Source of the DNA: Bacteroidia bacterium
GTDB lineage: Bacteria; Bacteroidota; Bacteroidia; 2-12-FULL-35-15
DNA length: 64,000 bases
Assembly (NCBI GenBank): GCA_030654175.1
Contig: JAURXZ010000030.1
Span: 372,001 to 436,000, forward strand
Direction of reading: 5' to 3'
The translations under genes and the position numbers were made by a program. The notes under the pieces were generated by a model. The model worked only from the letters and a program-made list of their open reading frames with translations. It had not been told where the DNA came from and made no database searches. How positions within the stretch are numbered: position 1 is the stretch's first letter; each line of letters starts with the position of its first letter. This document shows, piece by piece, positions 12,227 through 34,199 of the stretch.

Positions 12227-13138
12227 TTATTTTTTTTCATTTAAAGAATCAAAATGCACTTTGATCTCCAAAGGGATCAGTTCGCAAGGAAGATTATAAC
12301 ATGAAACTTTGGGAGCTATAAAACCTTTTGTTTCACCACCAATGGCATCCGCATCACTAATAAAAAGTATAGGAGATTTTGCCGATGCCCCGCCAACTTT
12401 TTTCCATATTTGCTGTGCAAAGGGAAGTGCCCAGTCTGATGCATTCTTATAATAAATTACCGAAAGTTTGCTTACCTCCATTTGTTGTGCAGCATATTCT
12501 TCATAGTCAATATCTGAATTCTGAACTATTACCAGTTTAACTAATTTTAAAATACCTGAAAGCATCATTTGTATTCGATCAGCATCTTTCTCATCCGTTT
12601 GATTAACTATCAAAAAAACATCCGCAGGTTCTGTATCAAAAACTTTTTTTGCCTGTTGCTCCAGAATAAGCCGAACATCTTCTACAAACTGGATTGCTGA
12701 AGGCACTCGTGATAAAATCATATTGTTTGATAAATGATGCTGCAACCTGTTAATAAAATCAAGTTGTCTTTTATCGGCATCAGAATCATCAAACTTGCCG
12801 GGCATCCATATAAACGTTTTATACCTTTCGTCCTTTTCGATCTTTTTGCGGGCTTCATTAAAATGATGCTCACTCACAGAAATTCCATCACAATATTCAA
12901 ATTGTGTTTTTTCAATAAAATGGATCGAGCAGAATGAATTTTGCATTTCAAGTTCAACATTTTTCAGATCGTTTTCTTGCTGCTTACCACTTTCAATGTC
13001 TGATTCAAGCGAATCTTCAAGTGAGGAAGAAAACAAAAATCCAGCGCGCTGCAACGTTAGAAGTAACCTTTTTTGGTTCTTACTCTGTTCAGATCTGTTT
13101 AAACTTAAAAAAACTTTATTTATGTTGGCTGTATCCAT
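12227..13138 (-). CDS. Double TIR-like domain protein, cassette A
   Basis: A cytoplasmic protein of 303 residues, homologous over its full length to the product at 33309-34199. Two Rossmann-like halves can be seen. Residues about 8-160 open with KVFLSLNRSEQ and a helix ending LLLTLQRAGF, as in TIR domains, and carry ISVSEHHFNEARKK, whose Glu is in the position expected for the TIR catalytic Glu. Residues about 165-300 open with DVFLIVNQTDEKDADRI and contain SKLSVIYYKNASDWALPFAQ and WKKVGGA, conserved in both paralogues. TIR domains either cleave NAD or act as adaptors; the assignment rests on fold-like patterns, not on a search. Here the gene lies after the PCMD array and before the phosphatase, whereas in cassette B the TIR gene comes first. 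The start ATG aligns exactly with the ATG chosen for the paralogue. Confidence 0.65.
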   Translation of the reverse strand: MDTANINKVFLSLNRSEQSKNQKRLLLTLQRAGFLFSSSLEDSLESDIESGKQQENDLKNVELEMQNSFCSIHFIEKTQFEYCDGISVSEHHFNEARKKIEKDERYKTFIWMPGKFDDSDADKRQLDFINRLQHHLSNNMILSRVPSAIQFVEDVRLILEQQAKKVFDTEPADVFLIVNQTDEKDADRIQMMLSGILKLVKLVIVQNSDIDYEEYAAQQMEVSKLSVIYYKNASDWALPFAQQIWKKVGGASAKSPILFISDADAIGGETKGFIAPKVSCYNLPCELIPLEIKVHFDSLNEKK

Positions 13139-13241
13139 CCTTCTAATTTTAGATTTGCTGAATGGGAGATTTAGAGATTTGTGTATTGATTTGATAATTT
13201 AATGATTCTCTATTTCCAAAATTCTCTAACTCTCTATTTTT

Positions 13242-14159
13242 TTATTTAACCACATTGAATTTCCCTTTTGTAAAAGGTTTGTTTTTATTATCACGAATTT
13301 CATAAAAATAAATACCTTCTGCAAATAAAAGGGTATTTATATTCGCACTGTAATTTTGAATTTTATAGTTGCCTATCAACTTACCCGAAACATCTATTAT
13401 TTGAATATTATCCGCTTCATCAATAGCTGCATTGATATTTATCTCATCTGATGCCGGATTTGGAAAGACTTTTACTTTATCAGAATAAATATTTTGCTCA
13501 TCAATACCTACCCAACCTGTTAATGCTACATCATCTAAATACAATGTGCTGCCTACCCGAGCTATCGATTTTTTATAACTGGGCGAGAAACCGATAATAA
13601 GGGTATCGGGCACTTCTGAGGATTGATAAACAAGATCGGATTGGAATAAAGTATATATTATTGTTGAATCAATTATAATGTCAGTACGGGCAATAGTATC
13701 AGTAGTTACTCCATTCCATTTTTGCAAAATAACAGTTACGGCTCCAAGGTCCGTGCCAACAGGGAGGTATTTAGCCCAGAACTCCAATTTTTCGGGGCGC
13801 CCGACATAAGAAACTCCAAGTTTCAGAGAAGGAGGAGAAATATTGATTTTTCCTGTAAAAACATAACCAATAGTATCATTTATTGTTCCCGGTACTGGAT
13901 TGTTGTTTACGAATATCGTTTTTAACTTCAGTGCAGAGTTCCCGGAATGTTTATCTATACCGGTTGCTTTAAACGCAGAAATAGGATTAGGAGGGGTAAA
14001 AATAGATAAGAAATTCAAAGTTTGCCAATTATCAGGAGTTTGATAATTAAATTCAGTAACCCAATTTTCAAAACCACCGTTGGGTTGAGAAAAACAGTTT
14101 AAAGTTAAAAGTGCAAAGTTTAAAGTTATAAAGCAAAATATGATTACTGTTTTTTTCAT
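13242..14159 (-). CDS. T9SS-exported PCMD-like surface protein (array member 5)
   Basis: A 305-residue exported protein. A signal peptide ends near FSQP, followed by NGGFENW and a beta-rich domain (about 25-215) with IDKHSGNSALKLKT, RPEKLEFWAKYLPVG and ARVGSTLYLDDVALTGWVG. This pattern resembles PCMD, the putative carbohydrate-metabolism/binding domain found in secreted Bacteroidota proteins. A type A T9SS sorting domain (about 225-305, FPNPASDE to KGKFNVVK) ends the protein. It is the promoter-distal member of five tandem paralogues (13242-18437), all with the same layout and similar length. It is expected on the cell surface or released. The function is probably carbohydrate or ligand binding, which is inferred. 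Confidence 0.8.
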   Translation of the reverse strand: MKKTVIIFCFITLNFALLTLNCFSQPNGGFENWVTEFNYQTPDNWQTLNFLSIFTPPNPISAFKATGIDKHSGNSALKLKTIFVNNNPVPGTINDTIGYVFTGKINISPPSLKLGVSYVGRPEKLEFWAKYLPVGTDLGAVTVILQKWNGVTTDTIARTDIIIDSTIIYTLFQSDLVYQSSEVPDTLIIGFSPSYKKSIARVGSTLYLDDVALTGWVGIDEQNIYSDKVKVFPNPASDEININAAIDEADNIQIIDVSGKLIGNYKIQNYSANINTLLFAEGIYFYEIRDNKNKPFTKGKFNVVK

Positions 14160-14195
14160 GGCTGTTTTTTTGCTTCTAAAAATCTAAAATTTCTT

Positions 14196-15101
14196 TTATT
14201 TAACCACCGTAAATTTCCCTTTAGTAAGGATCTGTTCTTTTTTGTCAATTATTTCATAGAAATAAATTCCTTGAGCAAATGAACTGGTATTGATGCTTGC
14301 ATTGTAATTCTGAATTTTGAAGCTACCGACCTGCTTACCTGCAACGTTAATTATTTTGACATTTTCGGCTTCTTTAATTTCTGTTGTGATTGTCAAATGG
14401 TCCTTAGCGGGATTCGGGAATATTTTAACGTTCCCAACATTTTTATCATGTTCGTCAGTGCCCACCCATCCTGTAAAACTCACATCGTCAACAAACAGCG
14501 TGGAGCCAACTCGCGCAGTAGTTGAGTCTTTGCTTGAAAAAAAAGCAATGATGGCGGAGTCCGGTTGTTCGACTGAAGAATAGCTAAGATTGAGTTGAAA
14601 TAAAGTATATTCTGAAGTTGATGCAATTGTTAGTTCGCCTTTCCCGATAGTATCATATATTGCTCCATTCCATTTTCGCAATGTAACACGTGCTAAACCA
14701 CTATCATTACCAACAGGCGAATATTTAGAATAGAACTCTAACTTTTCGGGGCGTCCGTTATAAGGGAAACCGGCTTTAAATGTTACAGGAGAAAGTTCTA
14801 TTTTCCCTTTAAAAGCGCAGCCAAAAGTATCAGGAATAGTACCTGGCATAGGATTATTATTAACGAAAACCGACTTTAATTTCAAAGCATAATTCCCTGA
14901 ATGTTTATCAATACCTATCGCTTTAAAAGCAGAAAGTGGATTAGGAGGACTTAAAATTGACAAAAAATTAAACGTTTGCCAGTTGTTGGGACTTTCAAAA
15001 GTGAACTCAGGCGTCCAGGTTTCAAAACCTCCATTGGGCTGAGCGATTGTGGTTAAAATTAAAGAAAACAAAACCACTAAAGTTGATACCGTTTTTTTCA
15101 T
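14196..15101 (-). CDS. T9SS-exported PCMD-like surface protein (array member 4)
   Basis: A 301-residue paralogue of its neighbours. A signal peptide ends at TTIAQP; a PCMD-like domain follows with NGGFETW, FKAIGIDKHSGNYALKLKS, RPEKLEFYSKYSPVGND and ARVGSTLFVDDVSFTGWVG; the T9SS sorting domain runs from KIFPNPAKDH to KGKFTVVK. The differences from the other copies lie mostly in loops between beta strands (for example ASTSEYTLFQLNLSYSS). It is 36 nt upstream of array member 5, so the two are co-transcribed. It is followed upstream by a 309-nt gap holding a possible gene remnant (15253-15414). Confidence 0.8.
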   Translation of the reverse strand: MKKTVSTLVVLFSLILTTIAQPNGGFETWTPEFTFESPNNWQTFNFLSILSPPNPLSAFKAIGIDKHSGNYALKLKSVFVNNNPMPGTIPDTFGCAFKGKIELSPVTFKAGFPYNGRPEKLEFYSKYSPVGNDSGLARVTLRKWNGAIYDTIGKGELTIASTSEYTLFQLNLSYSSVEQPDSAIIAFFSSKDSTTARVGSTLFVDDVSFTGWVGTDEHDKNVGNVKIFPNPAKDHLTITTEIKEAENVKIINVAGKQVGSFKIQNYNASINTSSFAQGIYFYEIIDKKEQILTKGKFTVVK

Positions 15102-15252
15102 ATAAAATATACTCCAATGGACTTTTTAAATCCTAATTTATTTTTTTAATCTTCTTTTACCTTAAAAAACTTCAGGAAGTTACAAAATTATATTGTTGAA
15201 ATAATTGAAAACATTTATCAGACCTTATATTAACTTAAATATATTAAAATAA

Positions 15253-15414
15253 TTAAAAATCAATTTGGAAGGTAAATACGGAGACTTTTTCAGTCAGATC
15301 AATCTCGATCAATGATGAATGAGAAACTCCTTCGTCCCTCGCAATGTGCCTTTGAATGGCACTGGTCTGTAAAAGTGAAATTTCATTAACATTTTTTACT
15401 TGTATTAAGTTTAT
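15253..15414 (-). pseudogene. Uninterrupted start-less coding-like fragment (possible gene remnant)
   Basis: In the widest gap of the PCMD array the minus strand has about 53 open codons ending at TAA (15253-15255). They read ...NEISLLQTSAIQRHIARDE, then GVSHSSLIEIDLTEK and VSVFTFQIDF. The composition is protein-like, not the Lys/Asn/Phe-rich translation usual for AT-rich spacer DNA. No start codon is present and an in-frame stop precedes it. It bears no resemblance to PCMD paralogues. It may be the surviving C-terminus of a gene lost or displaced during array expansion. I do not recognise the family. Confidence 0.3.
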
Positions 15415-16316
15415 TTAACAACATTAAATTTCCCCTTAGTTAATACTTTTTCTTTTTTATCAATAATTTCACAGAAATACATTCCTTCTGCAAACAAAGA
15501 AGTATTTATTCTTGCAATGAAATTTTGAATTTTGAAACAACCAACCATTTTACCTGAAACATCAATAATTTTTACATTTTGGGCTTCTTCAATTTCAGTA
15601 GTGATTGTTAAATTATCCTTTGCCGGATTTGGAAAAATTTTCACTTTATTGGTGTATCTATTTTTTTCTTCTATGCCTACCCATCCAGTAAATACCACAT
15701 CATCTATAAATAATGCGCTACCAGGTTCTCCTTTACCTTTATATTTACTGGCACCGAAAACGATAGATGCTGTATCAGAAATGGAAGTTGAATAATAGCT
15801 AAGATCAATATGGAATTTTGTATATTCTATTGTATGTGGAATTGTAATTCGACCAATCGCAATAGTATCCCTGCTTATTCCGTTATTTTTAAACAAGACT
15901 ACTAAAGCTTCAGCGCTATCGATGCCAACTGGAGCAGATTTAGCCCAGAATTCTAATTTTTCGGGGCGTCCAGAATAAGGAAAACCAAAGATATACGAAA
16001 AAGGAGAAAGCACTATTCTCCCGGTAAAAACGCCACCTGAAGTATCTCCAATCAAGTCAGGGTTTGGATTATTAACTAAATCAATCGTTGTTATTTTCAT
16101 TGCGTAATTTCCAGAATGTTTATCAATACCTATGGCTTTAAAAACAGAAAGGGGATTTGGAGGAGATAAAAGCGACAAGAAATTAAGTGTGGCCCATCCA
16201 TTCGGAATTTCATAAGAAGCTTCGGTAGTCCAGTTTTCAAACCCTCCATTAGGTTGGGCAGTGCTGTATAAAATACCGTAAGCTGATACTATTAAAAAAA
16301 TAATGATTTTTTTCAT
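15411..16316 (-). CDS. T9SS-exported PCMD-like surface protein (array member 3)
   Basis: A 301-residue paralogue. The start used is the ATG at 16316 (MKKIIIFLIV); a TTG two codons upstream is possible. A signal peptide ends at STAQP, then NGGFENW, FKAIGIDKHSGNYAMKIT, RPEKLEFWAKSAPVGID and a diverged SALFIDDVVFTGWVG. Where the siblings have ARVGS, this copy has GEPGS after a KYKGK insertion, so its ligand loop may differ. The T9SS domain ends with KGKFNVVK. It is separated from member 2 by a 241-nt AT-rich gap and from member 4 by 309 nt, so these members may have their own promoters. Confidence 0.8.
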   Translation of the reverse strand: MKKIIIFLIVSAYGILYSTAQPNGGFENWTTEASYEIPNGWATLNFLSLLSPPNPLSVFKAIGIDKHSGNYAMKITTIDLVNNPNPDLIGDTSGGVFTGRIVLSPFSYIFGFPYSGRPEKLEFWAKSAPVGIDSAEALVVLFKNNGISRDTIAIGRITIPHTIEYTKFHIDLSYYSTSISDTASIVFGASKYKGKGEPGSALFIDDVVFTGWVGIEEKNRYTNKVKIFPNPAKDNLTITTEIEEAQNVKIIDVSGKMVGCFKIQNFIARINTSLFAEGMYFCEIIDKKEKVLTKGKFNVVK

Positions 16317-16557
16317 CGTCAATTTTTAAATCCAAACAGTTCTAATTGAAAAAAGTGATTTGGAAATTTAATTTTTTATTGATCTTTTAAATTTTTTAAA
16401 GTATTGTAAATATCGAAAGAATAACATCAATAAATACTGCATACGTAATCGCTGCAAAAATGTTGTTATTATTAATCTAATTATCTTTTGTGTAAAAAAG
16501 ATCGATTTAACAGGGGGGCTTGTAAGGATTTAATACTAAATTTTAAAAAAATATTAA

Positions 16558-17463
16558 TTATCTGATTATGTTAAATTTCCCTTTAGTAAGCGTTTTGTCG
16601 TTTTTATCGCATATATCATAAAAATAAATTCCTGAAGTAAACATACTTGTGTTTATCAATACCTTATTGTTTTGGATTTTATAAATACCAATAAATTTGC
16701 CTAAAGCATCGATTACTTTCACATCACTAGCATTATCAATCTCGGCAAAAATATTGAGCTCATCTTTTGCAGGATTTGGGAATAGCTGAACTTTGTTGGC
16801 ATAAAGATCATATTGATTAATCCCCACCCAGCCTGTGAATGCGACATCATCAACATAAAGTGCACTTCCAACTCTTGCATTATCAGCATCTTCGCTGGAA
16901 CCAAAAACGATAGATGCCGAATCAGGTATCTCTGATGAAATGTATGTAAGATCAACCTTAAACAATGAATACGCAATGGTAGTGGTTATGACCATTTCGC
17001 CAAATCCGATAGTATCATTGCCTGTACCGTTCCATTTCCGCAAAAAAATACGCACCCCACCGGTATCATTACCAACAGGTATGTATTTGGACCAAAATTC
17101 CAGTTTTTCAGGTCTGCCAACATAAGGAAAACCGTATTTATATGAAGGTGGAGAAAGATTTATTTTTCCTGTAAAAACTAAACCAACTGTGTCATCAATC
17201 CCACCCGGAGCAGGGTTATTATTGACAAAAATGGTTTTTATTTTTAAAGCATAATTCCCCGAATGCTTATCCACCCCCGATACTTTAAAAGAGGATGTAG
17301 GATTTGGAGGTGTGAAAAACCCAAGGAAGTTGAGCGTTTGCCAACCGTCAGGAGACTGACTATTCAATATAGTACTCCAGTTTTCAAAACCACCATTGGG
17401 TTGAGACTTACCACCAAAAATTGTGAAAGCAAAAATTCCGAATATGAATATTAACTTTTTCAT
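16558..17463 (-). CDS. T9SS-exported PCMD-like surface protein (array member 2)
   Basis: A 301-residue paralogue. A signal peptide ends near GGKSQP; the PCMD-like domain has NGGFENW, FKVSGVDKHSGNYALKIKT, RPEKLEFWSKYIPVGNDT and ARVGSALYVDDVAFTGWVG; the T9SS sorting domain runs from LFPNPAKDE to KGKFNIIR. It is 68 nt downstream of array member 1. A TIIFVNNNPAP-type segment is shared with members 4 and 5, suggesting exchange or recent duplication inside the array. Confidence 0.8.
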   Translation of the reverse strand: MKKLIFIFGIFAFTIFGGKSQPNGGFENWSTILNSQSPDGWQTLNFLGFFTPPNPTSSFKVSGVDKHSGNYALKIKTIFVNNNPAPGGIDDTVGLVFTGKINLSPPSYKYGFPYVGRPEKLEFWSKYIPVGNDTGGVRIFLRKWNGTGNDTIGFGEMVITTTIAYSLFKVDLTYISSEIPDSASIVFGSSEDADNARVGSALYVDDVAFTGWVGINQYDLYANKVQLFPNPAKDELNIFAEIDNASDVKVIDALGKFIGIYKIQNNKVLINTSMFTSGIYFYDICDKNDKTLTKGKFNIIR

Positions 17464-17531
17464 TATTTATTTAATTCCTATATTTTATTTCAACAGGAAT
17501 AAATTTATTCCAAACTCTAAGGTAGTGTTTT

Positions 17532-18437
17532 TTACCTCACCACATTAAATTTACCTTTACAAAGCATTCGCCCCTCATCATTTCGTATTTCATATATATA
17601 AATACCCTCTGCAAATGCTCCCGTATTTATATTCACTTCGCAATTCCTGATTTTATATCTTCCCGTTATTTTTCCCGTTATATCACTCACTTGTATGTTA
17701 TCGGATGCTTCGATTGAAGAAAATATGTTCACATTATCACTTGCCGGATTTGGAAATATTTTTATTAATTCTGCATTATTGTCATATTCCTTAACACCCA
17801 CCCAGCCTAAAAACGTAACATCGTCAATATACAAGGTGCTGTTTACTCTGGCTATCTGAGGTACTTTACTTGCTGAAAAACCGATAAATGCAGAATCTGG
17901 AAGTTCATTGGAGTAATAAATAAGATCTGTCTGAAAAGTAGAGTAGCCAGCTGTTGCATTTATATTTGTTCCCCCAATGGCAATGGTATCACTATGAGTA
18001 CCATTCCATTTTTTTAGTATTACAATTGCTCCTGCCGTGTCATTACCAACAGGATAATATTTAGACCAGAATTCCAGTTTTTCAGGACGTCCTGTATACG
18101 GAAAACCATATTTATATGCAAACGGAGAAAGGGTAACTTTTCCAGTAAAAACACCTCCAGTAGTATCACCAACGACATCTGGGAGTGGATTATTACTAAA
18201 ATAGACTGTTTTAAGCTTTAATGCATAATTACCAGAATGTTTATCAATACCAGTAGCTTTAAAAGCAGAAAGAGGATTAGGGGCGGTAAGGGAGATAAAA
18301 TTAAGGGTTTGCCAATTGTCAGGCTCCTGCAGGGTGTAAATAGTACTCCAGTTTTCAAAACCACCATTGGGTTGGGCTTTCCCCTGAAATGTTGGGGCAA
18401 AAATCAAAATCACGGATATGATCATTAATTTTTTCAT
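17532..18437 (-). CDS. T9SS-exported PCMD-like surface protein (array member 1)
   Basis: A 301-residue paralogue, first of the five in transcription order and next to the kelch lipoprotein gene, the same position as the single copy in cassette B. A signal peptide ends near GKAQP; the PCMD-like domain has NGGFENW, FKATGIDKHSGNYALKLKT, RPEKLEFWSKYYPVGNDT and ARVNSTLYIDDVTFLGWVG; the T9SS domain runs from IFPNPASDN to KGKFNVVR. There is a 98-nt spacer to the kelch gene, without a recognisable terminator. Because of its position it may be the founding copy of the array; that is an inference from synteny. Confidence 0.8.
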   Translation of the reverse strand: MKKLMIISVILIFAPTFQGKAQPNGGFENWSTIYTLQEPDNWQTLNFISLTAPNPLSAFKATGIDKHSGNYALKLKTVYFSNNPLPDVVGDTTGGVFTGKVTLSPFAYKYGFPYTGRPEKLEFWSKYYPVGNDTAGAIVILKKWNGTHSDTIAIGGTNINATAGYSTFQTDLIYYSNELPDSAFIGFSASKVPQIARVNSTLYIDDVTFLGWVGVKEYDNNAELIKIFPNPASDNVNIFSSIEASDNIQVSDITGKITGRYKIRNCEVNINTGAFAEGIYIYEIRNDEGRMLCKGKFNVVR

Positions 18438-18535
18438 GTTTCGTTTTTTTAAACGGATTTTTTATTTAGGATATTTATTCCAATAGCTATCGTAAATTAA
18501 GATAATTCAATATTTTTTTACCAAATGTGTGTGTT

Positions 18536-19783
18536 TTATTGACCGTATACCCAAAAATTACCAAGGGCACCATCTGCATTATTTCCTATTCCAATATAAC
18601 CATTCCCTCCAATTGAAAAACCTACACCATATCCACGAACTTCCCCAGCGAAATCGGCCCTCTGAACCCAGGTATTTGAAAGTGGATCAAATTCAAAAAA
18701 ATCATTATAATTTAAGTTTCCATCATACCCTGTACCAACATACCCTTTATTGCCGATTGAAAAACCGACTGAACCATACCGTTGTGCGCCCGGAAAAGAA
18801 GCTTTTTGATTCCATTTTCCTATCGGATCATTGTTTATATCAAATCCATCACTTGTATCGGTTGGATCGAATTCCCAAAAATCATTGAAGCTGGAGCTTC
18901 CATCTGTGCCACATGCAAGATATCCTTTATTTCCAATTGAGAACCCAGCACCGACATTTCGAGGCACAACAGCGGCTTTTTGAGTCCATTGGTTTAAGTC
19001 AGGATCATATTCTAAAAAATCGGTACGGGTAGAGAAAAAATCGTCACTTCCTGACCCAACGTATCCTTTGTTCCCAATTGAAAAACTGAAAGCAAACCCA
19101 CGGGGTGTATCTCCACAATCGGCCTTTTGTAGCCACACATTTGAAAGTGGATCGTATTCCCAGAAATCTTTAAGATAAGCCGTTCCGATATACCCTGTTC
19201 CAATATACCCCTTGTTCCCTATCGAAAAGCCAACAGCATCAAATCTTGCAACTCCACCGAAATCGGCCTTTTGTGTCCACTCATTTAATTCAGGATCAAA
19301 CTCCCAAAAATCACGGTGCTGACCAGCAATTGCATCTACACCGGTTCCTACATACCCTTTGTTTCCAATGGAAAAACCTACCCCCTCTGTTCTTGCTCCT
19401 GCATTAAAATCCATTTGCCTGCACCAGGTATCTGAAACCCCGCCCTGCGCAACTTCCACGCAAGAAGCCTCGCTAACTTCTTTATTACTATTGGATCTAA
19501 CACATATTGAACCCGACTTTTTACCGAAAGTTACTATAATGGAAGTAGTTCCTTGTCCTGAAGTTATTTGGGCATCGTCCGGAACTGTCCATAAATAATA
19601 AGTAGAAATTTCTACAGGATCTATGGAAAAGATAACTCCTGTTTCTCCCGGGCATAGATTCTTGCGTCCGGTGATAACTCCCGGAGTGGAAGGAGATTTT
19701 TCTTTTTTGCAGGAAATAAAAAAAGCAATAAAAAAAATAAAGAAAAAGCTATTCCTAAAAAAACCAAGTAAGAAAGGTTGCAT
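18536..19783 (-). CDS. PKD-like/kelch-repeat lipoprotein, cassette A
   Basis: A protein of 415 residues from the ATG at 19783: a hydrophobic signal ending in the lipobox-like FFISC (lipoprotein), a PKD-like beta domain (YYLWTVPDDAQITSGQGTTS), then about six kelch blades, each with a variant of FSIGNKGYVGTG and of DFWEFDPxxNxWxQKADF. It is expected to be a lipid-anchored beta-propeller facing the periplasm or surface, for ligand or protein binding. An upstream in-frame ATG at 19873 overlaps the stop of the beta-barrel gene (TAATG) and would add 30 residues before the signal. The paralogue at 27513-28814 begins at the position matching 19783, so I chose that start, with some doubt. Confidence 0.75.
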   Translation of the reverse strand: MQPFLLGFFRNSFFFIFFIAFFISCKKEKSPSTPGVITGRKNLCPGETGVIFSIDPVEISTYYLWTVPDDAQITSGQGTTSIIVTFGKKSGSICVRSNSNKEVSEASCVEVAQGGVSDTWCRQMDFNAGARTEGVGFSIGNKGYVGTGVDAIAGQHRDFWEFDPELNEWTQKADFGGVARFDAVGFSIGNKGYIGTGYIGTAYLKDFWEYDPLSNVWLQKADCGDTPRGFAFSFSIGNKGYVGSGSDDFFSTRTDFLEYDPDLNQWTQKAAVVPRNVGAGFSIGNKGYLACGTDGSSSFNDFWEFDPTDTSDGFDINNDPIGKWNQKASFPGAQRYGSVGFSIGNKGYVGTGYDGNLNYNDFFEFDPLSNTWVQRADFAGEVRGYGVGFSIGGNGYIGIGNNADGALGNFWVYGQ

Positions 19784-19872
19784 TCCGAAATGCCAAATGT
19801 TTGGCCTTTGGATCAGGTTTTCCTCCCCTTCTCTTTGGTGTTGTAGTGAATAATCTGGATTACTTTTCAGCA

Positions 19873-20931
19873 TTATCTGACCTTTCTGATTAAATTTTTT
19901 ATCGTATAAGAAATAGAGATCCCCAGCTCATATTTATTTAATTTTATTGAGTTATCAATATAAAAATAATTATTTGTAAGAGCTGCACTATCAAAGCGCT
20001 TTGAAGGATTTGTTAAGCTATTCAACCCACCACAATACCTTGCATCTATAAATATCCCGAGGTTCTTAAATTTAAAACCAATACCGGCCCCAGCGAGCCA
20101 TTCAAAATTATTTTTATTTCTCATGCTAAGAACATCAATGTTCCCTGTAGATGAATAATTTACTACTTCTTCAGTAAAAAGAGCTTCATTGGTATAAGCA
20201 ATCTGGGAAGTTGCCTTGGCCTCCCTTATTCTTAAATACCCGGCACCAAGAGACGCATAAGGCACAACATTTTTCCCTAAAAGAAAATATTTTTTCACAT
20301 ATAAAGGAACTTCAATAAATGATAATTTTTCATTATAAAGCATTGTCCAGTCCAGGTTTTTCGAAAAATTTCTATTGTATTGAATACTGAAATTAACGAT
20401 GTCTACGTTAATAGAAATGTTTTTTCTGAATTCATATTCAACATATCCGTAATACAAAAGAATTGTTTTATTTGTTTTGTAAGGGGCATTATAATCAACA
20501 TTTTCAAGAATGGAATATGTTTTGGAAATTTCTAATTTCGGCTGCACACCTGCATTTCGAAGACCAATTGAAAACAACGGAAGGACATCAAACTTTTTCA
20601 CCAAAAGATCAAAATCTTCATGAGTAGAGGTTTCCTTCAATTCATAATACGGATTATTCTTTAACAAACTTCGCACATAGGTTTCGGCTTGAAGCATATT
20701 ATCCTGATCAAGGGATGATTTTGCAAGCAATTCCAAAGCATTTTCCTTCTTTTTTTTGGAAAAATTACACTCTTTAAGCGATTTTTCAAGGAGTTTAATA
20801 CAATTGTCGTAATCACCATTATTATATAATTCTTCGGCCTGTTTTAAATTTTGGTCACAGTTAGTTTGAGCCTTCATTTTTAGGCCAACCTGCAAGAAGA
20901 AAAATAAGAATAAAATAAAAACACGATTCAT
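19873..20931 (-). CDS. Periplasmic TPR plus outer-membrane beta-barrel protein, cassette A
   Basis: A protein of 352 residues. A signal peptide (about 1-21, ending KAQ) precedes an N-terminal TPR-like helical segment (about 22-115) with EELYNNGDYDNCIKLLEKSL and three cysteines. These cysteines are in the same places in the paralogue at 28890-29957. Residues about 120-352 are alternating amphipathic strands rich in aromatic residues (YASLGAGYLRI, LAGAGIGFKFKNLGIFIDA), ending ISYTIKNLIRKVR, as in eight-stranded outer-membrane barrels. It probably links a periplasmic module to the outer membrane. It lies 36 nt after the nSTAND gene and its stop overlaps a possible ATG of the kelch gene, so it sits in a tight operon. 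Confidence 0.7.
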   Translation of the reverse strand: MNRVFILFLFFFLQVGLKMKAQTNCDQNLKQAEELYNNGDYDNCIKLLEKSLKECNFSKKKKENALELLAKSSLDQDNMLQAETYVRSLLKNNPYYELKETSTHEDFDLLVKKFDVLPLFSIGLRNAGVQPKLEISKTYSILENVDYNAPYKTNKTILLYYGYVEYEFRKNISINVDIVNFSIQYNRNFSKNLDWTMLYNEKLSFIEVPLYVKKYFLLGKNVVPYASLGAGYLRIREAKATSQIAYTNEALFTEEVVNYSSTGNIDVLSMRNKNNFEWLAGAGIGFKFKNLGIFIDARYCGGLNSLTNPSKRFDSAALTNNYFYIDNSIKLNKYELGISISYTIKNLIRKVR

Positions 20932-26421: not shown

Positions 26422-26554
26422 TAGTATAATTGTATAATAAAAAGTATATGTCTTTTTCTACTTTTTTATATCAACATAATAAGAAGTTGATAAATTAAAA
26501 TTTTGCGAAGGTAGCCATTTAGCAAAACAAACTAATTAACTAAAGAGAATATGT

Positions 26555-27460
26555 TTACTTAAATACATTAAATTTTCCAGTTGTAATTACTTTGTCTTTT
26601 TTATCACGAATTTCACAGCAATAGATGCCTGTTGCGAATAATGTGGTATTCACATTTGTTGAGTAATTATGAATTTTGTAAATACCGGCTAATTTGCCTG
26701 AAGAGTCAAAAACTCTAACATTTTCAGCATCTTTTACCTCAACAAGGATTGTAACATTGTCAATGGCCGGATTTGGAAATATTTTCACTTTGTCCGAATT
26801 TAATTTTTGTTCATCCATACCCACCCATCCGGTAAATTGAACATCATCAACAAACAGGGTGCTGCCCACCCTAGCTAAAACAGAATCATTACTGGCTGTG
26901 AAAATAATTATCGCAGTATCAGGGAGCCCTATTGAATTATATTGAAGAGGAGCTTGGGAGAGGGTATATGCTGAAGTTGCTAAAAGCACAACCGAGCCGG
27001 TTGCAATCGTATCATGGCTAGATCCATTCCATTTTAAAAGCATAATACCTGCTCCTGCGGCATCACCACCAACGGGTAAATATTTAAACCAGAATTCCAA
27101 ATTTTCCGGCCGGCCAGTATAAGGAAAACCGTATGTCCTTGAAGGTGGAGAATAATTTATCTTCCCGGTAAATACCGCACCTGCAGAATCACCTGTTTTA
27201 ATCTGAGATGGCTTGTTATTAAGGAAAACCGTTTTTATTTTTAATGCGTAATTTCCTGAATGTTTATCTATGCCAATGGCCTTAAAAGCAGAAATAGGGT
27301 TAGGAGGAGACAATTGTGAAAGAAAATTAAATGTTTGCCAATGATCGGGATTTTCATATGAAAATTCTGTGGTCCAATCTTCAAATCCGCCATTGGGTTG
27401 AGCTTTAATTATTGAAATCCAGGAAAATATTATAAAAAATGTAAATATTGATCTTTTCAT
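26555..27460 (-). CDS. T9SS-exported PCMD-like surface protein, single copy of cassette B
   Basis: A 301-residue homologue of the five array proteins at 13242-18437. The start used is the ATG at 27460 (MKRSIFTFFII); a TTG 21 nt upstream would add basic residues. A signal peptide ends at KAQP, then NGGFEDW, FKAIGIDKHSGNYALKIKT, RPENLEFWFKYLPVGGDA and ARVGSTLFVDDVQFTGWVG; the T9SS sorting domain runs from KIFPNPAIDN to TGKFNVFK. It lies between the kelch lipoprotein and the phosphatase, as the array does in cassette A. Confidence 0.82.
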   Translation of the reverse strand: MKRSIFTFFIIFSWISIIKAQPNGGFEDWTTEFSYENPDHWQTFNFLSQLSPPNPISAFKAIGIDKHSGNYALKIKTVFLNNKPSQIKTGDSAGAVFTGKINYSPPSRTYGFPYTGRPENLEFWFKYLPVGGDAAGAGIMLLKWNGSSHDTIATGSVVLLATSAYTLSQAPLQYNSIGLPDTAIIIFTASNDSVLARVGSTLFVDDVQFTGWVGMDEQKLNSDKVKIFPNPAIDNVTILVEVKDAENVRVFDSSGKLAGIYKIHNYSTNVNTTLFATGIYCCEIRDKKDKVITTGKFNVFK

Positions 27461-27512
27461 GTATTTTTTTTTAAGCCTCAATACCTAAACTAGATTAAAA
27501 ATTAATTGCTTT

Positions 27513-28814
27513 CTATTTTGTAAACACCCAAAAATCTTGATAAGTAAGCAAAGCATTATTATACCAATCACCCGTTCCTACAAATCCTTTATTCTCAATT
27601 GAAAACCCAACAGCAAATTCGCGTTTTCCACCATCCAACTCCGGTAGGGTATCCCATTGATCAAGAAAAGGGTCATATTCATAAAAATCATTAAAATAAA
27701 TTAGCCCATCAAATCCTGTACCTATATACCCTTTTTTGCCAATTGAAAATCCGACTGAGCCATAACGTGGAAGGATCGGAATATTTCCTTTTATGGTCCA
27801 TTTACCAAGAGGGTTTCCATTTTCATCCAGTCCAAGACTTGCATCAGAAGGGTCAAATTCATAAAAATCATTATGCTTTACACCATTTATACCAAGGCCG
27901 GTTCCAAAATACCCTTTATTTTCATTTGAAAAACCCACACCACTATGGCGTGGAACAATATCTGCCTTTCTTGTCCAAACATCGGTCGAAGGATCATATT
28001 CCCAAAAATCAGCTTGTAAGCCACTGCTTGCAGGCTGTCCTGTGCCAACATATCCTTTATTTCCAATAGAAAAGCCTACGGCATAATGCCGGGTAGTATC
28101 GCTACAATCAGCCTTTCTCAACCATGAATTTGAAACAGGTGTGTATTCCCAAAAATCCTTGAGAAACTGATCAGGAGTGAATCCTGCTGATTTGTGCCCC
28201 GTTCCAATATATCCTTTATTTCCAATGGAAAAGCCCACAGCATTTATTCTTTGAAGCCCCAAATTCATGTTGGCAGCATTTCCACCTAAATCTGCTTTTT
28301 GTGTCCATGTGCTTAATTCTGGATCGAATTCCCAAAAATCTTCATAATAAACCACCACTCCGGAGAAATATCCTACACCAGTTCCAACATATCCTTTGTT
28401 ACCAATACAAAAACCAACACCAGCTGTTCTGATACCCCCACCAAAATTTAATTCTCCACACCACTGATTTAAAGCGCCAAATTTCACTTCCATGAAAAAT
28501 TGATTACTTATCGCTTCGCCATCCTTGTAATAAGTAACACCAATTTTACCTGCTTTTCTTCCGAAATTAACCTTGATTTTACTCGTACCCTGGCCCGAAG
28601 TGATTTGAGCTTGCTCAGGAACTGTCCATAAAGTATAATCCGCATCCGAATTGGCTTCCACGGAGTATTCCACATCAAGTTCACCATAACAGACACCCGC
28701 AGGGCCTTTTATTTCAACAATCTTGACTGTAGGGTCTTTAATGCAAGAATAAAACCCTACAAACAAAATTATAAAAGATATACTTCGGACTAATTTTGAA
28801 TTTAAAAATCGCAT
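27513..28814 (-). CDS. PKD-like/kelch-repeat lipoprotein, cassette B
   Basis: A protein of 433 residues. The signal sequence ends in a lipobox (VGFYSC), so it is a lipoprotein. A PKD-like domain (TLWTVPEQAQITSGQGTSK) leads into about six kelch blades, each with FSIGNKGYIGTG and DFWEYDPSTDVWTRKAD variants. It is homologous over its full length to the protein at 18536-19783, which supports the internal ATG chosen there. It is expected to be a lipid-anchored propeller. The spacer to the barrel gene upstream is 75 nt and to the PCMD gene downstream 52 nt, consistent with one transcript. Confidence 0.82.
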   Translation of the reverse strand: MRFLNSKLVRSISFIILFVGFYSCIKDPTVKIVEIKGPAGVCYGELDVEYSVEANSDADYTLWTVPEQAQITSGQGTSKIKVNFGRKAGKIGVTYYKDGEAISNQFFMEVKFGALNQWCGELNFGGGIRTAGVGFCIGNKGYVGTGVGYFSGVVVYYEDFWEFDPELSTWTQKADLGGNAANMNLGLQRINAVGFSIGNKGYIGTGHKSAGFTPDQFLKDFWEYTPVSNSWLRKADCSDTTRHYAVGFSIGNKGYVGTGQPASSGLQADFWEYDPSTDVWTRKADIVPRHSGVGFSNENKGYFGTGLGINGVKHNDFYEFDPSDASLGLDENGNPLGKWTIKGNIPILPRYGSVGFSIGKKGYIGTGFDGLIYFNDFYEYDPFLDQWDTLPELDGGKREFAVGFSIENKGFVGTGDWYNNALLTYQDFWVFTK

Positions 28815-28889
28815 TTTGTTATAATTATATTTAATTATTATATGCTTTTTGGAGTTATGTCAGTGGAAAACAAATTGAAAAAATTATCC

Positions 28890-29957
28890 TTAATCTTTAG
28901 TTGGCTTTTTTTTGACTTTATAAATTAAATAAGTAAAAACAAGCGAAAAATCAAATTTTGCCAACCTGGTATCACTATCAATATAACTGTATTCTTTTAT
29001 CAAACGATCTGCTTTAAAACGATAGGTTCTATCATTCAGGGTATTAACAGAAATGTACGCTCTTAAATCAAAACCTACACCAAAGTTATTAATCCTATAT
29101 GTAGCGCCCCCCCCGGCAAGAATGGAAACAACGTAAGAATTGCGTAAAATTTTCGAAGAAAAATTTTTCTCGTAATCTTCCTCATAAGTATCAACATTAC
29201 CATAAAGATTATTTACAATCTTTCTTTCTTGTTCAATATTCAATGTGCCTTTCTTTAGATAAAGATTACTGAATCCGCCCATCAAATAAAAATTTAATTT
29301 TTTTTGTGATTTTAAAAAATAAAATTTATTACCAAAATCTAATTGGAAATATCTTAATTCTTCGGTACTGGTCATCTTCCAGAGACTATCTTTTAATTCT
29401 AAATCCCTATTAAAGTTTATGGAAAAATAACCTGCATCTGCAAAAAAGGAAATTTTTTCGATTGCCCTGTATTCCAAAAGGAAATTAGTGTTAAAAAATT
29501 TTTTAGTTTCAAATTCGCTGTCGTTTATTATACCCGGCATTACCTGGTAAGAACGTGTTACCAATACTTTCGGAATGGTGTAATGAGGCCTTATACCAAA
29601 GGATAGCTTTGGGTAAACATAATAATTATTAAATTTCCTTGAAAAATCATCAAGGCCTGTATACTCTTTAATTTTAAAGGAAGGATTGTTTTTCAATAAG
29701 AGCCTGAAGTTTTTATCAACCGCTGGCAAACTGTCTTTTTCTAAGTTTGAATTGATAAGCAAAACATAGGCATTTTCTTTTTTATTTTTGGATAAAGAAC
29801 AAGTATTTAATCCGTTTTGAAGCATGTTAATACAGTCCTCGTAACGCCCTGAATTATAAAGGTCTGTGGCCTCTTCAATAATATTATCGCAAGGATTTTG
29901 AGCTACCATTTTTTGGCCGCATAAAATTAATCCGATTATATAAATCCAATTTTTCAT
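28890..29957 (-). CDS. Periplasmic TPR plus outer-membrane beta-barrel protein, cassette B
   Basis: A 355-residue homologue of 19873-20931. A signal peptide ends near MVAQ. The TPR-like segment (about 20-115) has ATDLYNSGRYEDCINMLQNG and NTCSLSKNKKENAY, with the same three cysteines as the paralogue. A region of alternating aromatic strands follows (about 120-350, for example GVGFDLRAYISVNTL). The ATG overlaps the stop of the nSTAND gene by one base (TAATG), indicating translational coupling. The barrel part is much more diverged between copies than the TPR part, which fits a surface-exposed region under selection. Confidence 0.72.
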   Translation of the reverse strand: MKNWIYIIGLILCGQKMVAQNPCDNIIEEATDLYNSGRYEDCINMLQNGLNTCSLSKNKKENAYVLLINSNLEKDSLPAVDKNFRLLLKNNPSFKIKEYTGLDDFSRKFNNYYVYPKLSFGIRPHYTIPKVLVTRSYQVMPGIINDSEFETKKFFNTNFLLEYRAIEKISFFADAGYFSINFNRDLELKDSLWKMTSTEELRYFQLDFGNKFYFLKSQKKLNFYLMGGFSNLYLKKGTLNIEQERKIVNNLYGNVDTYEEDYEKNFSSKILRNSYVVSILAGGGATYRINNFGVGFDLRAYISVNTLNDRTYRFKADRLIKEYSYIDSDTRLAKFDFSLVFTYLIYKVKKKPTKD

Positions 29958-32900
29958 TATTTATTTTTACAGGTTTTCTCGTAAGGAATGGTTTCACTAA
30001 TATTTTGGGTCCATTCAGTTTCAGTCAGATTCCTTTTTAACAGCTCACAAAAAGAAGATGATAGTTTTTCCGTTGAAGGTTCAATTTTCCTTATAAAATG
30101 ATCGGCCCCACATACATATAATTTGCCTTCATTATCGAATAAGAGATAACGGGTTTTTGACTTTATGTCCTTTATCTCCAAGGGTTTCTGCACTTTTTTT
30201 GCTAAGTTAAATATTTTTATTGATTTGTCGGCAAATGCGGCAGCAAGCATATTGCTGGAACTATTAAATGTGATTTTCTCAACGCTTGTATTGTTTTCTG
30301 AAATTGTAGAAATTAAATTTTCAGCGCGTAACACTTTTTCAGTATCATAAAGTCTTATTTTCCCATCAGAATAGCCGACAGCCAAAATACTTTTTCTGCT
30401 ATTAAATTTCAGTTGAACAGGCTTAGCCTTTTCACTTTTAAATACAAGGTTTATTTTTTCAGAAGCAATATCAACAGCTAATAAATCGCCATTGGCTAAT
30501 GAAACTGCAAGTTCTTTCCCTTCAGGCAAAACAACCAGATCTTGTATGGAAGAATTTGTTTTTATTTTTTTCAACAACTCTGTTCCATCTGCTGAATATT
30601 TCCAAACCATAATTGTGCTATCTTTCCCTGAACTGGCAAACATCCCTTTAGGGCCATTAAATGCTATAACACGTAAAGGTCCTTTGTGGCTTTTAACTAA
30701 TTCTTTAATAAGAACAGGTTTTTTAAAATCGGTAATATCCCAAATACAAACAGTACCATTTTCATGTCCGCTCATTATAATATTGGGCCAATCGGTAAAT
30801 GTTATAATTTCAAATGGACTTGGATAATTTAATTTGCCTTGTTCTATTTGTTTTTCCGATTTGAGTTCCCATTTATAAATATTCCCTCCTTTATCAGCTG
30901 ATAACAAAATATTATTATCTAACAATAACATTGTTCGTTGTTCTAATGATGGGAAGATCTTAGGAGCAGCACCCTGCTTGTTTAGATTATTATAAGCACT
31001 CCGCACAGCACTATAAATAACAGGGTCTTGCCCTTCTCCTCCGTTATCTAATGTAAATTTATAAGCCTGAAATGCTAATAAAGTTTGGTGCTGAGGATCA
31101 TTGGAGAATAATACAGATTTTAATGCAATGCTTTGAGCTAATGATATATTACTGATTCTGGAAGCTTCTTTTTCAGCCTTTTCAGCCTTGTTTTTTGAAA
31201 TAATTGCTTCCTGTTTAGCCTTTTCAGACTCAGTAAGCGCCAAGGTAGCCCGTTCGGTTTCTTTTTTTGCAATATCAGCATTTTGTTTTGCTTGTATGAA
31301 ATTTTGACGGGCATCTTTTTCAGCATTTTCGGCAATTCCTTTTGCCTTAATGGCCTCCTGCTTTGATGATTCTGCTTGCTTTTTTGCTTCCATTGCAAAC
31401 TTTTGCTTAATTAAAGCATCTTCTTTAGCAATTAATGCGACTTTTTTTGCATTCACGGCATTACACTCCGCTATTTTTGCCTCTTCTGTTTTCTGATTAG
31501 CTATTTCTTGCTGATTGAGAGCTTTATTTCGTTCCTTAAATGCAAAAGAAGTAAATCCAATTAAAATCAAACCTATAACTGATGCAATTACGAGTGCAGC
31601 CCTTCGTTTTCGTTTTATGGTTCTCTCACTAATCTTAATAAAATCTTTTGCAGGACGGATAAATTGTGCAGCTTCTTCTAATTTTTGGGTCGGGGATAAA
31701 TTACTTGTATCGTATTTAGCAATTAAGTAAGGATTGGGATTTAAAGTTTTATACCAATTTTTGAAATATGTTAATGAACCTATTGTAAGTAAATAGTCTT
31801 TTGAGCGATCTTGCTCTTCCCACCTTTCCACTTGTTTTTTTAAGTCATTTATTACTGAAACATTTTCATGATCTTGTTTAGTCCATTCAGCAAGTTCAGT
31901 CCAGTTTCTAATTAATGATTCGTGAGTAATATCGAGAATATCCTCATCGTGTAACTCATTTGAACCGTTGGAGGATGACACTATATATGGTTTCAGTAAT
32001 GTATTGCCGGGTTCCCGAAATATATTAACTAATCCTTCGATAAGTTTATTATCAACTTTTTCTCCGATTATTTGTTTTATTTCCAGTATTGTTGCGCGGT
32101 TTCTTACAGCACGACTATCATTTATTTTGGTAAGGCAAGTAAAAATCTTTTTTAAAATTCTTTGAGCATCCTCTCTTGAAATGCTTGTGGTGAGCGAAGT
32201 TGAACCATCTCTACCAATATGTTGGCGGCAATAATCAACAGATGATTCAAAAAGCTCACGGGCATGTGCATTAAGCACATTGGCAAGAGAGCCTCCTTCT
32301 AAAAACTTTTGTTTGAATTCAGGTTGATCATTATACCAGGAAGAAAACATGGCCTTTTGATCCTCGGGAATCAATTTTGCATCAATACCTCCAACTTTTG
32401 CATAATGAATAATATCCATTTCCTCTGCCCCATCTTGTACATGGCATTTCCAGATACTATTCAAAGCATGCTGCAAAATTGGAAGCTGATCAAGGCCATC
32501 ACATTCGTTTATCAATGTTTCAATCAAGCGGTTGGAAATTCTATTTCCGCTGAGGGTGGCAGGTTCTTCAATTACCTGATGAACCTCTTTTCTTTTAAGT
32601 CGGGGAACAAAAAACTGGCTAAAGCCAATATATTCGGGCAAACCTCTAAATACCGCACATTGCCCCACATAATCCGAACGCATGGTACATATGATGTATA
32701 TTGGAAGATCTTCCGCCAGCGCAATTTTAGCTGTTTCGAGCAACAGATTAATAACGGCTTGAGCATTTACTGATGCTTTACCGTTATTGTAATTTTCTGA
32801 ATTGGTAAAAAACTCTTCGAATTGGTCAACAAGAATAAAAAGATTAGCCGCTTTTCTTTTTAATTTTTTTCGTTCTGTTTCATCAGCATTATTCCAAACC

Positions 32901-33304
32901 TGACCATTGTAATCCAGATAAAAAGGGGAGTTTTTGTATAAATTGATCAATGAGGAAAATCCAAAACTTAATTCCTTTTCAACATAGGCAATATCAGCAT
33001 ATCCTAATTTTTCTGCCAGAGTAATTGCCATATTTTTCAATGGAGAACGTTCCGGACGGAAATCCGCAATTAACCAGTTATTGAATTTTGCTTTAAAAAA
33101 TCCGGCACGGGCATTAGGTATTACCCCGGCATATACGATAGAAGATTTACCATCACCGGAAGCACCGGTAAGCATTACAAATTTTTTCTCCTGAAGTTGA
33201 GATGTAATTTTTTCAATATGTTCCTCTCTTCCACGAAAAAAAATAGATTCTTCTTCGTTGAAAGGCCTGAGACCGGGATATGGGCAAATTTTTTCTTCCT
33301 GCAT
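29957..33304 (-). CDS. nSTAND ATPase with transmembrane helix, coiled coil and WD40 propeller, cassette B
   Basis: A protein of 1115 residues, closely similar to 20968-24297 in its ATPase part and less so in its propeller. It has PYPGLRPFNEEES, P-loop GASGDGKSS (47-55), Walker B LFILVDQFEEFF and CTMRSDYVGQC. One membrane helix lies near residue 575 (LVIASVIGLILIGFTSFAF), followed by a Lys/Glu/Ala-rich coiled coil and WD40 repeats (for example MFASSGKDSTIMVWKY and ILAVGYSDGKIRLYDT). The protein ends PYEKTCKN-like, as in copy A. It starts 4 nt after the double-TIR gene and overlaps the barrel gene, so TIR, STAND and barrel proteins are made together. It is expected to be an inner-membrane, signal-dependent ATPase switch. 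Confidence 0.88.
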   Translation of the reverse strand: MQEEKICPYPGLRPFNEEESIFFRGREEHIEKITSQLQEKKFVMLTGASGDGKSSIVYAGVIPNARAGFFKAKFNNWLIADFRPERSPLKNMAITLAEKLGYADIAYVEKELSFGFSSLINLYKNSPFYLDYNGQVWNNADETERKKLKRKAANLFILVDQFEEFFTNSENYNNGKASVNAQAVINLLLETAKIALAEDLPIYIICTMRSDYVGQCAVFRGLPEYIGFSQFFVPRLKRKEVHQVIEEPATLSGNRISNRLIETLINECDGLDQLPILQHALNSIWKCHVQDGAEEMDIIHYAKVGGIDAKLIPEDQKAMFSSWYNDQPEFKQKFLEGGSLANVLNAHARELFESSVDYCRQHIGRDGSTSLTTSISREDAQRILKKIFTCLTKINDSRAVRNRATILEIKQIIGEKVDNKLIEGLVNIFREPGNTLLKPYIVSSSNGSNELHDEDILDITHESLIRNWTELAEWTKQDHENVSVINDLKKQVERWEEQDRSKDYLLTIGSLTYFKNWYKTLNPNPYLIAKYDTSNLSPTQKLEEAAQFIRPAKDFIKISERTIKRKRRAALVIASVIGLILIGFTSFAFKERNKALNQQEIANQKTEEAKIAECNAVNAKKVALIAKEDALIKQKFAMEAKKQAESSKQEAIKAKGIAENAEKDARQNFIQAKQNADIAKKETERATLALTESEKAKQEAIISKNKAEKAEKEASRISNISLAQSIALKSVLFSNDPQHQTLLAFQAYKFTLDNGGEGQDPVIYSAVRSAYNNLNKQGAAPKIFPSLEQRTMLLLDNNILLSADKGGNIYKWELKSEKQIEQGKLNYPSPFEIITFTDWPNIIMSGHENGTVCIWDITDFKKPVLIKELVKSHKGPLRVIAFNGPKGMFASSGKDSTIMVWKYSADGTELLKKIKTNSSIQDLVVLPEGKELAVSLANGDLLAVDIASEKINLVFKSEKAKPVQLKFNSRKSILAVGYSDGKIRLYDTEKVLRAENLISTISENNTSVEKITFNSSSNMLAAAFADKSIKIFNLAKKVQKPLEIKDIKSKTRYLLFDNEGKLYVCGADHFIRKIEPSTEKLSSSFCELLKRNLTETEWTQNISETIPYEKTCKNK

Positions 33305-33308
33305 TTTT

Positions 33309-34199
33309 TTATGAAGCAGGTTTTAAAACAACTTTATCATACTGTATCTTTATCTCAAGAGGTATAAGCTCTCCTGCAACAATAAGTGAAATAACTTTAG
33401 GAGCAGCGAATTTTTTATTGGTATTGGTATGCGGATCAATATCTCCTATTAAAAGTATTGGTGTATGGGAAGTGGCTCCGCCAATTTTTTTCCAAACCTG
33501 CTGTGCAAATGGCAATGCCCAATCTGCAGATTCTTTAAAATAAATTACAGCTAATTTACTTTTTGATATTTGCTGTTTGCACAGTTCAGAATAATCAGTA
33601 TCACTATCCTGGATAATATTTAGCTTCTCAACGGGCACAATATCACTTAGCATATCTATAATTTCATTGGCTTCAATTTCGTCCAGCTGGTTGGAAATAA
33701 GAAAAATATCCGTAGAATTTAAATCAAATGAAACCAGTTCTTTTTTCTCCATTAGAGAGCGTATATCATCTGCAAGCTGAATTGCAGATACTACATTACT
33801 ATACACCATACTCTTGGAAATATTATTTTTCACTTCATTTATAAAATCCATTTGAAGAGATTCGATATTCAAAAGATCAGTTGAAGGAGGTTGCCAAACA
33901 AAAATTTTGAAGTCGGGATTCAGAAGAAGATATTTTTTAGCTTCCTGAAATTGAAATTTTGAAACGGAAATACCGGTATCAGTTAAAGGCTGGTATTCAG
34001 GGAAAAGAATGTGAATGGAACAGTTAGAACTTGACAGTTGTTCAGATATTGAAGGAAGATTACCGGTGGTGAAATGCTTCTGATCAGCCACGACAGTCAT
34101 TCCTGCTCTCTGCAAAACAGATGAAAGTTCATTTCGTAACCCGGATTGCTCCTCGGAGCAAATAGAAAGAAATACTGTTACGTTTTGATTGTTGGACAT
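33309..34199 (-). CDS. Double TIR-like domain protein, first gene of cassette B
   Basis: A 296-residue homologue of 12227-13138. The first TIR-like half opens with VTVFLSICSEEQ and SSVLQRAGM and has ISVSKFQFQEAKK. The second half opens with DIFLISNQLDEIEANEI and has SKLAVIYFKESADWALPFAQ and WKKIGGA. The start chosen is the ATG at 34199, not the TTG at 34217: it aligns residue for residue with the paralogue start, and the promoter-like box at 34221-34228 leaves almost no leader for the TTG. It lies 4 nt upstream of the nSTAND ATPase. TIR-STAND neighbourhoods are known from bacterial conflict and signalling systems. NAD cleavage versus adaptor function cannot be decided from the sequence. Confidence 0.68.
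   Translation of the reverse strand: MSNNQNVTVFLSICSEEQSGLRNELSSVLQRAGMTVVADQKHFTTGNLPSISEQLSSSNCSIHILFPEYQPLTDTGISVSKFQFQEAKKYLLLNPDFKIFVWQPPSTDLLNIESLQMDFINEVKNNISKSMVYSNVVSAIQLADDIRSLMEKKELVSFDLNSTDIFLISNQLDEIEANEIIDMLSDIVPVEKLNIIQDSDTDYSELCKQQISKSKLAVIYFKESADWALPFAQQVWKKIGGATSHTPILLIGDIDPHTNTNKKFAAPKVISLIVAGELIPLEIKIQYDKVVLKPAS

What the first reader, a model, noticed from the sequence alone, without database searches (positions are those of the whole stretch)
12227..34199. Double TIR-like proteins with one half apparently lacking the catalytic Glu
The two homologues have two Rossmann-like halves. The first carries ISVSxxxFxEA with Glu at the position of the TIR catalytic Glu. In the second, the position after SDW reads Pro (DWALPFAQ) where active TIRs have Glu. 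A pair with one active and one inactive half, next to a STAND ATPase, would fit an NADase effector or a TIR adaptor.
Basis: inference. Interest (0 to 1): 0.6.

Follow-up and report, generated by a model that had tools for sequence, protein, structure and literature searches.

The report
Catalytically dead TIR-like STAND partner
The two proteins are paired enzyme-like domains, the first clearly related to NAD-destroying immune (TIR/DUF4062) domains, but neither half has the residue needed to cut NAD, so they most likely act as a silent adaptor for a membrane-anchored NLR-like (STAND) switch rather than as the killing enzyme.

Summary
Two 42%-identical paralogues (33309-34199 and 12227-13138, minus strand) have two alpha/beta halves and sit with nSTAND1-WD40 ATPases. 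The first half is TIR-superfamily: its predicted fold matches DNPH1 and plant TIRs, and by profile it is DUF4062, recently shown to be TIR-like NADases. The catalytic-Glu claim fails. The DUF4062 catalytic column is Glu in 32/32 other DUF4062 domains and is the residue mutated in the solved E97A structure. In this family it is Gln (37/48) or His (6/48), never Glu. The second half is a five-stranded alpha/beta domain without a Glu; that it is a TIR is plausible, not shown. The module partners nSTAND1 obligately: the same 14 of 36 congeneric genomes carry both, mostly adjacent, and in other lineages the two are fused into one ~1,500-aa protein. Elsewhere the module carries an extra N-terminal TIR. 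The nSTAND has one transmembrane helix, and the cassette adds an outer-membrane protein, Kelch lipoprotein, T9SS-sorted proteins and a SpoIIE phosphatase. Best reading: a catalytically dead adaptor coupling an envelope-spanning STAND switch to interchangeable outputs.

The parts
33309..34199 (-). module A: double TIR-like protein, 296 aa. First half is DUF4062/TIR-like (residues ~6-155), second half a five-stranded alpha/beta domain (~155-296).
12227..13138 (-). module B: paralogue of module A, 303 aa.
29957..33304 (-). nSTAND1-TM-coiled coil-WD40 protein A (1115 aa); starts 4 bp after module A; one TM helix at residue ~571 preceded by KRKRR
20968..24297 (-). nSTAND1-TM-coiled coil-WD40 protein B (1109 aa), 54% identical to A
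28890..29957 (-). outer-membrane protein A, paralogue of 19873-20931 (30% identity)
   Evidence: no Pfam family of its own
19873..20931 (-). TPR-like N-terminus plus outer-membrane beta-barrel protein B (OMP_b-brl_2)
27513..28814 (-). Kelch/PKD-like putative lipoprotein A
18536..19873 (-). Kelch/PKD-like putative lipoprotein B
26555..27481 (-). PCMD-domain protein with T9SS C-terminal sorting domain (cassette A)
13242..18437 (-). five tandem PCMD-like T9SS-sorted paralogues (13242-14159, 14196-15101, 15411-16322, 16558-17463, 17532-18437), cassette B
   Evidence: identity to the cassette A protein, 53-57%
25183..26421 (-). SpoIIE/PP2C-type phosphatase A with N-terminal TM helix and coiled coil
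11035..12087 (-). SpoIIE/PP2C-type phosphatase B, next gene downstream of module B

Best explanation
The two proteins are non-catalytic subunits of a STAND (nSTAND1) switch. Module = a DUF4062-type TIR-like domain whose catalytic Glu is replaced by Gln or His, followed by a second alpha/beta domain without a Glu. SHOWN by sequence: loss of the catalytic Glu in both halves, one-to-one partnership with an nSTAND1-WD40 protein, natural fusion of the two in other lineages, an extra N-terminal TIR on the module in others, and a single TM helix in the nSTAND. INFERRED: module and ATPase are cytoplasmic, while the coiled coil and WD40 propeller are periplasmic near the outer-membrane and Kelch partners. 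Ligand sensing by the propeller would trigger ATP-dependent oligomerisation. The module would cluster with it as an adaptor and pass the signal on: to the fused TIR where there is one, and in the window, which has none nearby, most likely to the operon-encoded SpoIIE-type phosphatase.
For: Catalytic column: Glu in 32/32 DUF4062; 0/48 here (Gln 37, His 6). It is the column mutated in the KpSwz E97A chain, SFTEKAFDYA (E97 is required for NADase and defence, PMC13174449). Second-half Trp227, Ala228 and Trp236 are invariant in 48/48. The same 14 of 36 congeneric genomes have module and nSTAND1-WD40; the own genome has two of each, all in the window. Fused single proteins: L063-L070, L165, L166. 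Module fused to an N-terminal TIR: L003-L008, L072, L073 and a Hymenobacter plasmid pair. TM helix with basic N-flank in both window proteins and in nearly every full-length relative scanned. SpoIIE near most TIR-less stand-alone loci with long flanks and near none of the eight TIR-fused loci.
Against: No biochemistry. SpoIIE as the output rests only on gene order; it is missing near L012, L015, L071 and all fused forms, and presence or absence is confounded by lineage. The full-length model is moderate (pLDDT 73.6, pTM 0.51). The TIR identity of the second half is not established. Membrane topology is a hydropathy inference. A Gln-bearing pocket could still bind or slowly turn over a nucleotide.
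Confidence: 0.6

Rival explanations
1. One reading: an NADase effector, the first half being the active TIR through the Glu of FQEA/FNEA.
For: TIR-superfamily fold of the first half, membership of a family of NADases (PMC13174449), and a Glu in helix alphaC one turn from the catalytic column.
Against: The aligned column is Gln (copy A) or His (copy B) in the window and never Glu in 48 relatives; the proposed Glu is Ala, Lys or Thr in close relatives; the near-invariant DUF4062 Ser8 is Ile/Leu, Glu35 is Gln/Leu and Gly67 is Gln/Phe in the window copies.
Confidence: 0.06
2. Ligand-binding pseudoenzyme: the Glu-to-Gln change keeps a pocket that binds NAD+, ADP-ribose or a TIR-made nucleotide and gates the STAND ATPase.
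For: The substitution is specific: Gln in 37 of 48, and Gln again at the same column in a distant family that also sits beside nSTAND1 genes (L128, L129, L127 and L173).
Against: Other conserved DUF4062 positions (Ser8, Glu35) are lost, the B clade has His, and the Hymenobacter protein has Ala. No ligand evidence.
Confidence: 0.2
3. Anti-phage abortive-infection system in which the module is only a recruiting domain and the killing enzyme is encoded elsewhere in the genome.
For: STAND, TIR and DUF4062 proteins are recurrent in defence (PMC13174449, PMC8195603); patchy distribution (14/36 congeners); one unlinked TIR_2 protein exists in the genome.
Against: PADLOC finds no defence system among the ten proteins scanned (weak or incidental matches only). 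The neighbourhood is mutY, HipBA and oxidoreductase genes, and the cassette is envelope- and T9SS-associated. One plasmid hit and no phage hit.
Confidence: 0.12

Closest known systems
DUF4062 TIR-like NADases (Swarozyc/KpSwz; human TEP1) (PMC13174449, bioRxiv 2026)
   Same: The first half is homologous (hhalign probability 97.7%); relatives pass the Pfam PF13271 cut-off. TEP1/NWD1/NWD2 share the order DUF4062 - STAND - WD40, as in the fused forms here.
   Different: Catalytic Glu replaced by Gln/His; an extra second alpha/beta domain; usually encoded as a separate protein; the ATPase is nSTAND1, with a TM helix before the WD40 propeller.
nSTAND1 conflict systems (Kaur et al. 2020, PMC7159879; Kaur et al. 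2021, PMC8195603)
   Same: nSTAND1 NTPase as central switch; effector or adaptor parts supplied by neighbouring genes; the first paper discusses catalytically inactive enzyme domains as regulators.
   Different: The passages read from those papers do not mention DUF4062, and no such tandem module was found in them; here there are envelope partners and a SpoIIE phosphatase. The papers were searched by term, not read in full.
Canonical TIR NADase domains (TIR_2, plant RUN1/RPS4, PdTIR)
   Same: alpha/beta fold with matching helix alphaC; a TIR is fused to the module's N-terminus in L003-L008, L072 and L073.
   Different: No catalytic Glu in either half; only sub-threshold TIR_2 matches.

Membership tests
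DUF4062 TIR-like NADases | sequence homology to PF13271 | tested here: met
   Relatives L004 and L094 above the gathering score; window copy A 19.0 bits, sub-threshold; hhalign probability 97.7%, E 2e-12 for the family.
DUF4062 TIR-like NADases | catalytic Glu (KpSwz E97 column) | tested here: not met
   Glu in 32/32 DUF4062, 0/48 in this family; column identity checked against the KpSwz E97A chain.
DUF4062 TIR-like NADases | NAD+ hydrolysis | not testable with these tools
   needs purified protein
Canonical TIR domain | TIR fold, first half | tested here: met
   VIA Z 10-12 to RUN1, RPS4, PdTIR and TIR-APAZ over residues 5-155; DNPH1, of the related nucleoside-hydrolase fold, scores higher.
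Canonical TIR domain | TIR fold, second half | tested here: inconclusive
   Foldseek lists RPS4, AbTIR, PdTIR and TcpB among GTPases and other flavodoxin-like folds; the VIA list is generic; hhalign to TIR_2 not significant.
Canonical TIR domain | catalytic Glu in helix alphaC, second half | tested here: not met
   DWALPFAQ region: no Glu at Trp +1 to +5 in any of 48 rows.
nSTAND1 switch protein (the neighbouring gene) | nSTAND1 domain | tested here: met
   PF20703 E 1.5e-73 and 1.5e-71; Walker A GASGDGKS and Walker B LVDQFEE / LIDQFEE read directly.
Swarozyc defence system | DUF4062 followed by a portal-binding HTH/winged AUX domain in one protein | tested here: inconclusive
   The second half is predicted as a five-stranded alpha/beta domain, not HTH/winged, but AUX homology was not searched directly.

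The most novel reading that the evidence does not exclude
A bacterial family in which a TIR-like NADase domain (DUF4062) was turned into a fixed pseudoenzyme, Glu to Gln, that works as a nucleotide-gated adaptor between an envelope-spanning STAND sensor and exchangeable outputs (a TIR, or a SpoIIE phosphatase). Its fused forms have the same domain order as human TEP1/NWD1/NWD2.
Probability: 0.2. Interest if true: 0.8.

Novelty: new variant of a known kind. Interest (0 to 1): 0.5.

Why it matters
It shows TIR-superfamily domains kept, with strict conservation elsewhere, after losing NADase chemistry, as dedicated partners of STAND ATPases in bacteria. That is a bacterial parallel to signalling TIRs such as MyD88/MAL, and its fused forms have the domain order of TEP1/NWD1/NWD2, of which NWD1 and NWD2 gave no NADase activity in vitro (PMC13174449). 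It also suggests that a STAND switch may signal across an envelope to a protein phosphatase instead of killing the cell.

Tried and rejected
(1) NADase by the first-half Glu: rejected by alignment. (2) Direct PDB sequence hits for the family profile: none convincing; a search with the TIR-fused alignment gave only chance matches. (3) HincII/REase_II sub-threshold matches to module A residues 107-165: seen in one of 26 members, judged chance. (4) Defence-system library: no system called; the HEAT-ARM_XIII match of nSTAND B is to its WD40 part. (5) Whole-chain Foldseek hits to dehydrogenase E1-beta etc. are low-TM generic alpha/beta matches. (6) The four hhalign outputs are stale and invalid; one search replaces them. 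(7) A hypothesis that both halves are tandem duplicates: hhalign of first against second half finds no similarity. (8) Genome-contig scan used the two-sequence alignment A1 and found only near relatives; wider reach came.

Full report
WHAT IS THERE. The finding covers two minus-strand genes, module A (33309-34199; a TTG six codons upstream gives the 302-aa ORF) and module B (12227-13138). They are 42% identical over 290 residues and are the only two in the 5.1-Mb genome. Each belongs to a gene cassette with the same component types. Cassette A (34199-25183): module, nSTAND1-WD40, outer-membrane protein, Kelch/PKD lipoprotein, one PCMD/T9SS-sorted protein, SpoIIE phosphatase. Cassette B (24297-11035): nSTAND1-WD40, outer-membrane protein, Kelch/PKD lipoprotein, five PCMD/T9SS-type proteins, module, SpoIIE. 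Between A and B, the nSTAND proteins are 54% identical, Kelch 51%, SpoIIE 47%, outer-membrane proteins 30%.

FOLD. An AlphaFold2 model from nine sequences (pLDDT 73.6, pTM 0.51) has a first half of order beta-alpha repeated five times. Residues 5-155 match DNPH1 (Z 14.4), the RUN1 TIR (12.3), RPS4 (11.8), TIR-APAZ (10.9) and PdTIR (10.2). The second half, modelled alone (pLDDT 85.7, pTM 0.82), is a five-stranded alpha/beta domain. Foldseek lists TIRs (RPS4, AbTIR, PdTIR, TcpB) among small GTPases and other folds, and VIA does not single out TIRs. So the first half is TIR-superfamily; the second is compatible with a TIR but not proven.

FAMILY OF THE FIRST HALF. Pfam gives DUF4062 (PF13271) sub-threshold in module A, above threshold in relatives from other families, and at E up to 1 in 15 of 26 members. 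A profile-profile comparison of 48 family members with 32 other DUF4062 domains gives probability 97.7%, E 2e-12. DUF4062 was described in May 2026 as a family of TIR-like NADases (Swarozyc, TEP1), with catalytic E97 in KpSwz and E1008 in TEP1 (PMC13174449).

THE CATALYTIC GLU. In DUF4062 the motif is S-x-T-x-x-E-[YF]-x-x-A, with Glu in 32/32. The solved KpSwz chain, whose published construct is E97A, reads SFTEKAFDYA in the PDB sequence, so the mutated residue is exactly this column. In module A the motif reads SVSKFQFQEA and in module B SVSEHHFNEA: the column is Gln83 and His92. Across 48 relatives it is Gln 37, His 6, Ala 2, Lys 1, Ile 1, gap 1. DUF4062 Ser8, Glu35 and Gly67 are also changed in both window copies. 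In the second half Trp227, Ala228 and Trp236 are invariant in 48/48 with no Glu nearby. Both halves therefore lack the catalytic Glu. A distant family that also neighbours nSTAND1 genes (L127-L129, L173) again has Gln at that column, so the replacement looks old and retained rather than decay.

PARTNERSHIP WITH THE STAND ATPASE. In the genus, exactly the same 14 of 36 genomes carry the module and the nSTAND1-WD40 gene; if genomes were independent, which they are not, chance would be 2.6e-10. The own genome has two modules and two nSTAND1 genes, all in the window. In cassette A the ATPase gene starts 4 bp downstream of the module. In thirteen relatives module and nSTAND1 are one open frame, with the module directly N-terminal to nSTAND1 and, where checked, WD40 after it. 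In eight relatives and a Hymenobacter tibetensis plasmid pair a TIR is fused N-terminally to the module, next to the nSTAND gene. A tree of the module sets the TIR-fused plus nSTAND-fused forms apart from the stand-alone forms by a branch with 99/94 support.

ENVELOPE AND OUTPUT. Both window nSTAND proteins, and nearly all full-length relatives scanned, have one hydrophobic helix just after the ATPase domain, usually preceded by basic residues. By the positive-inside rule (established knowledge) this puts ATPase and module inside and the coiled coil and WD40 propeller in the periplasm. The neighbouring outer-membrane, Kelch-lipoprotein and T9SS-sorted genes recur in the genus and partly in other families. 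SpoIIE-type phosphatase genes are near most stand-alone modules with long flanks (including L011, L074, L076, L078, L082, L149, L150, L152-L156, L158 and both window cassettes) and near none of the TIR-fused or nSTAND-fused ones. I read this as a change of output module, but lineage confounds it.

VERDICT. The observation of two halves, one without Glu, is right; the claim that the other half has it is wrong. The proteins work most like non-enzymatic signalling TIRs or death-fold adaptors: subunits that let a STAND switch recruit an output. By homology the first half belongs to DUF4062; by its defining chemistry it does not meet the NADase criterion. Not shown: physical interaction, topology, the signal, the output, and whether the Gln pocket binds a nucleotide.

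Noticed in passing
window 24509-25045 (+): A 178-aa putative lipoprotein between the two cassettes matches GldN (PF19841, 40.9 bits); a similar gene lies at the same place in L082 (17991-18557). It may tie the cassette to gliding/T9SS.
   Followed up: partly
window 13242-18437 (-): Five tandem PCMD/T9SS-type paralogues in cassette B against one in cassette A; the number varies among relatives, suggesting fast expansion of a secreted protein set.
   Followed up: partly
L127-L129, L173 (G146, G049, G186, G098): A second, distant nSTAND1-linked family: TIR - DUF4062-like - third alpha/beta domain, again with Gln at the catalytic column; the L173 TIR keeps a canonical SEWCKRE while L127-L129 do not.
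   Followed up: partly
window 35526-37168 (-): A HipA kinase with an adjacent HTH (HipB-like) gene near the module A locus.
   Followed up: no
L026-L029: A very divergent module clade in the same genus (long branch 3.39) that has lost the whole FQEA region but keeps WA..F.QQVWK and the nSTAND partner.
   Followed up: no
L079, L081 (divergent gene next to the TIR-module gene): 707- and 880-aa proteins with the same kind of N-terminal TIR encoded divergently beside the TIR-fused module, possibly a second TIR component.
   Followed up: no
window 811-866 (+): Flavo-1 RNA (RF01705), above the gathering score.
   Followed up: no
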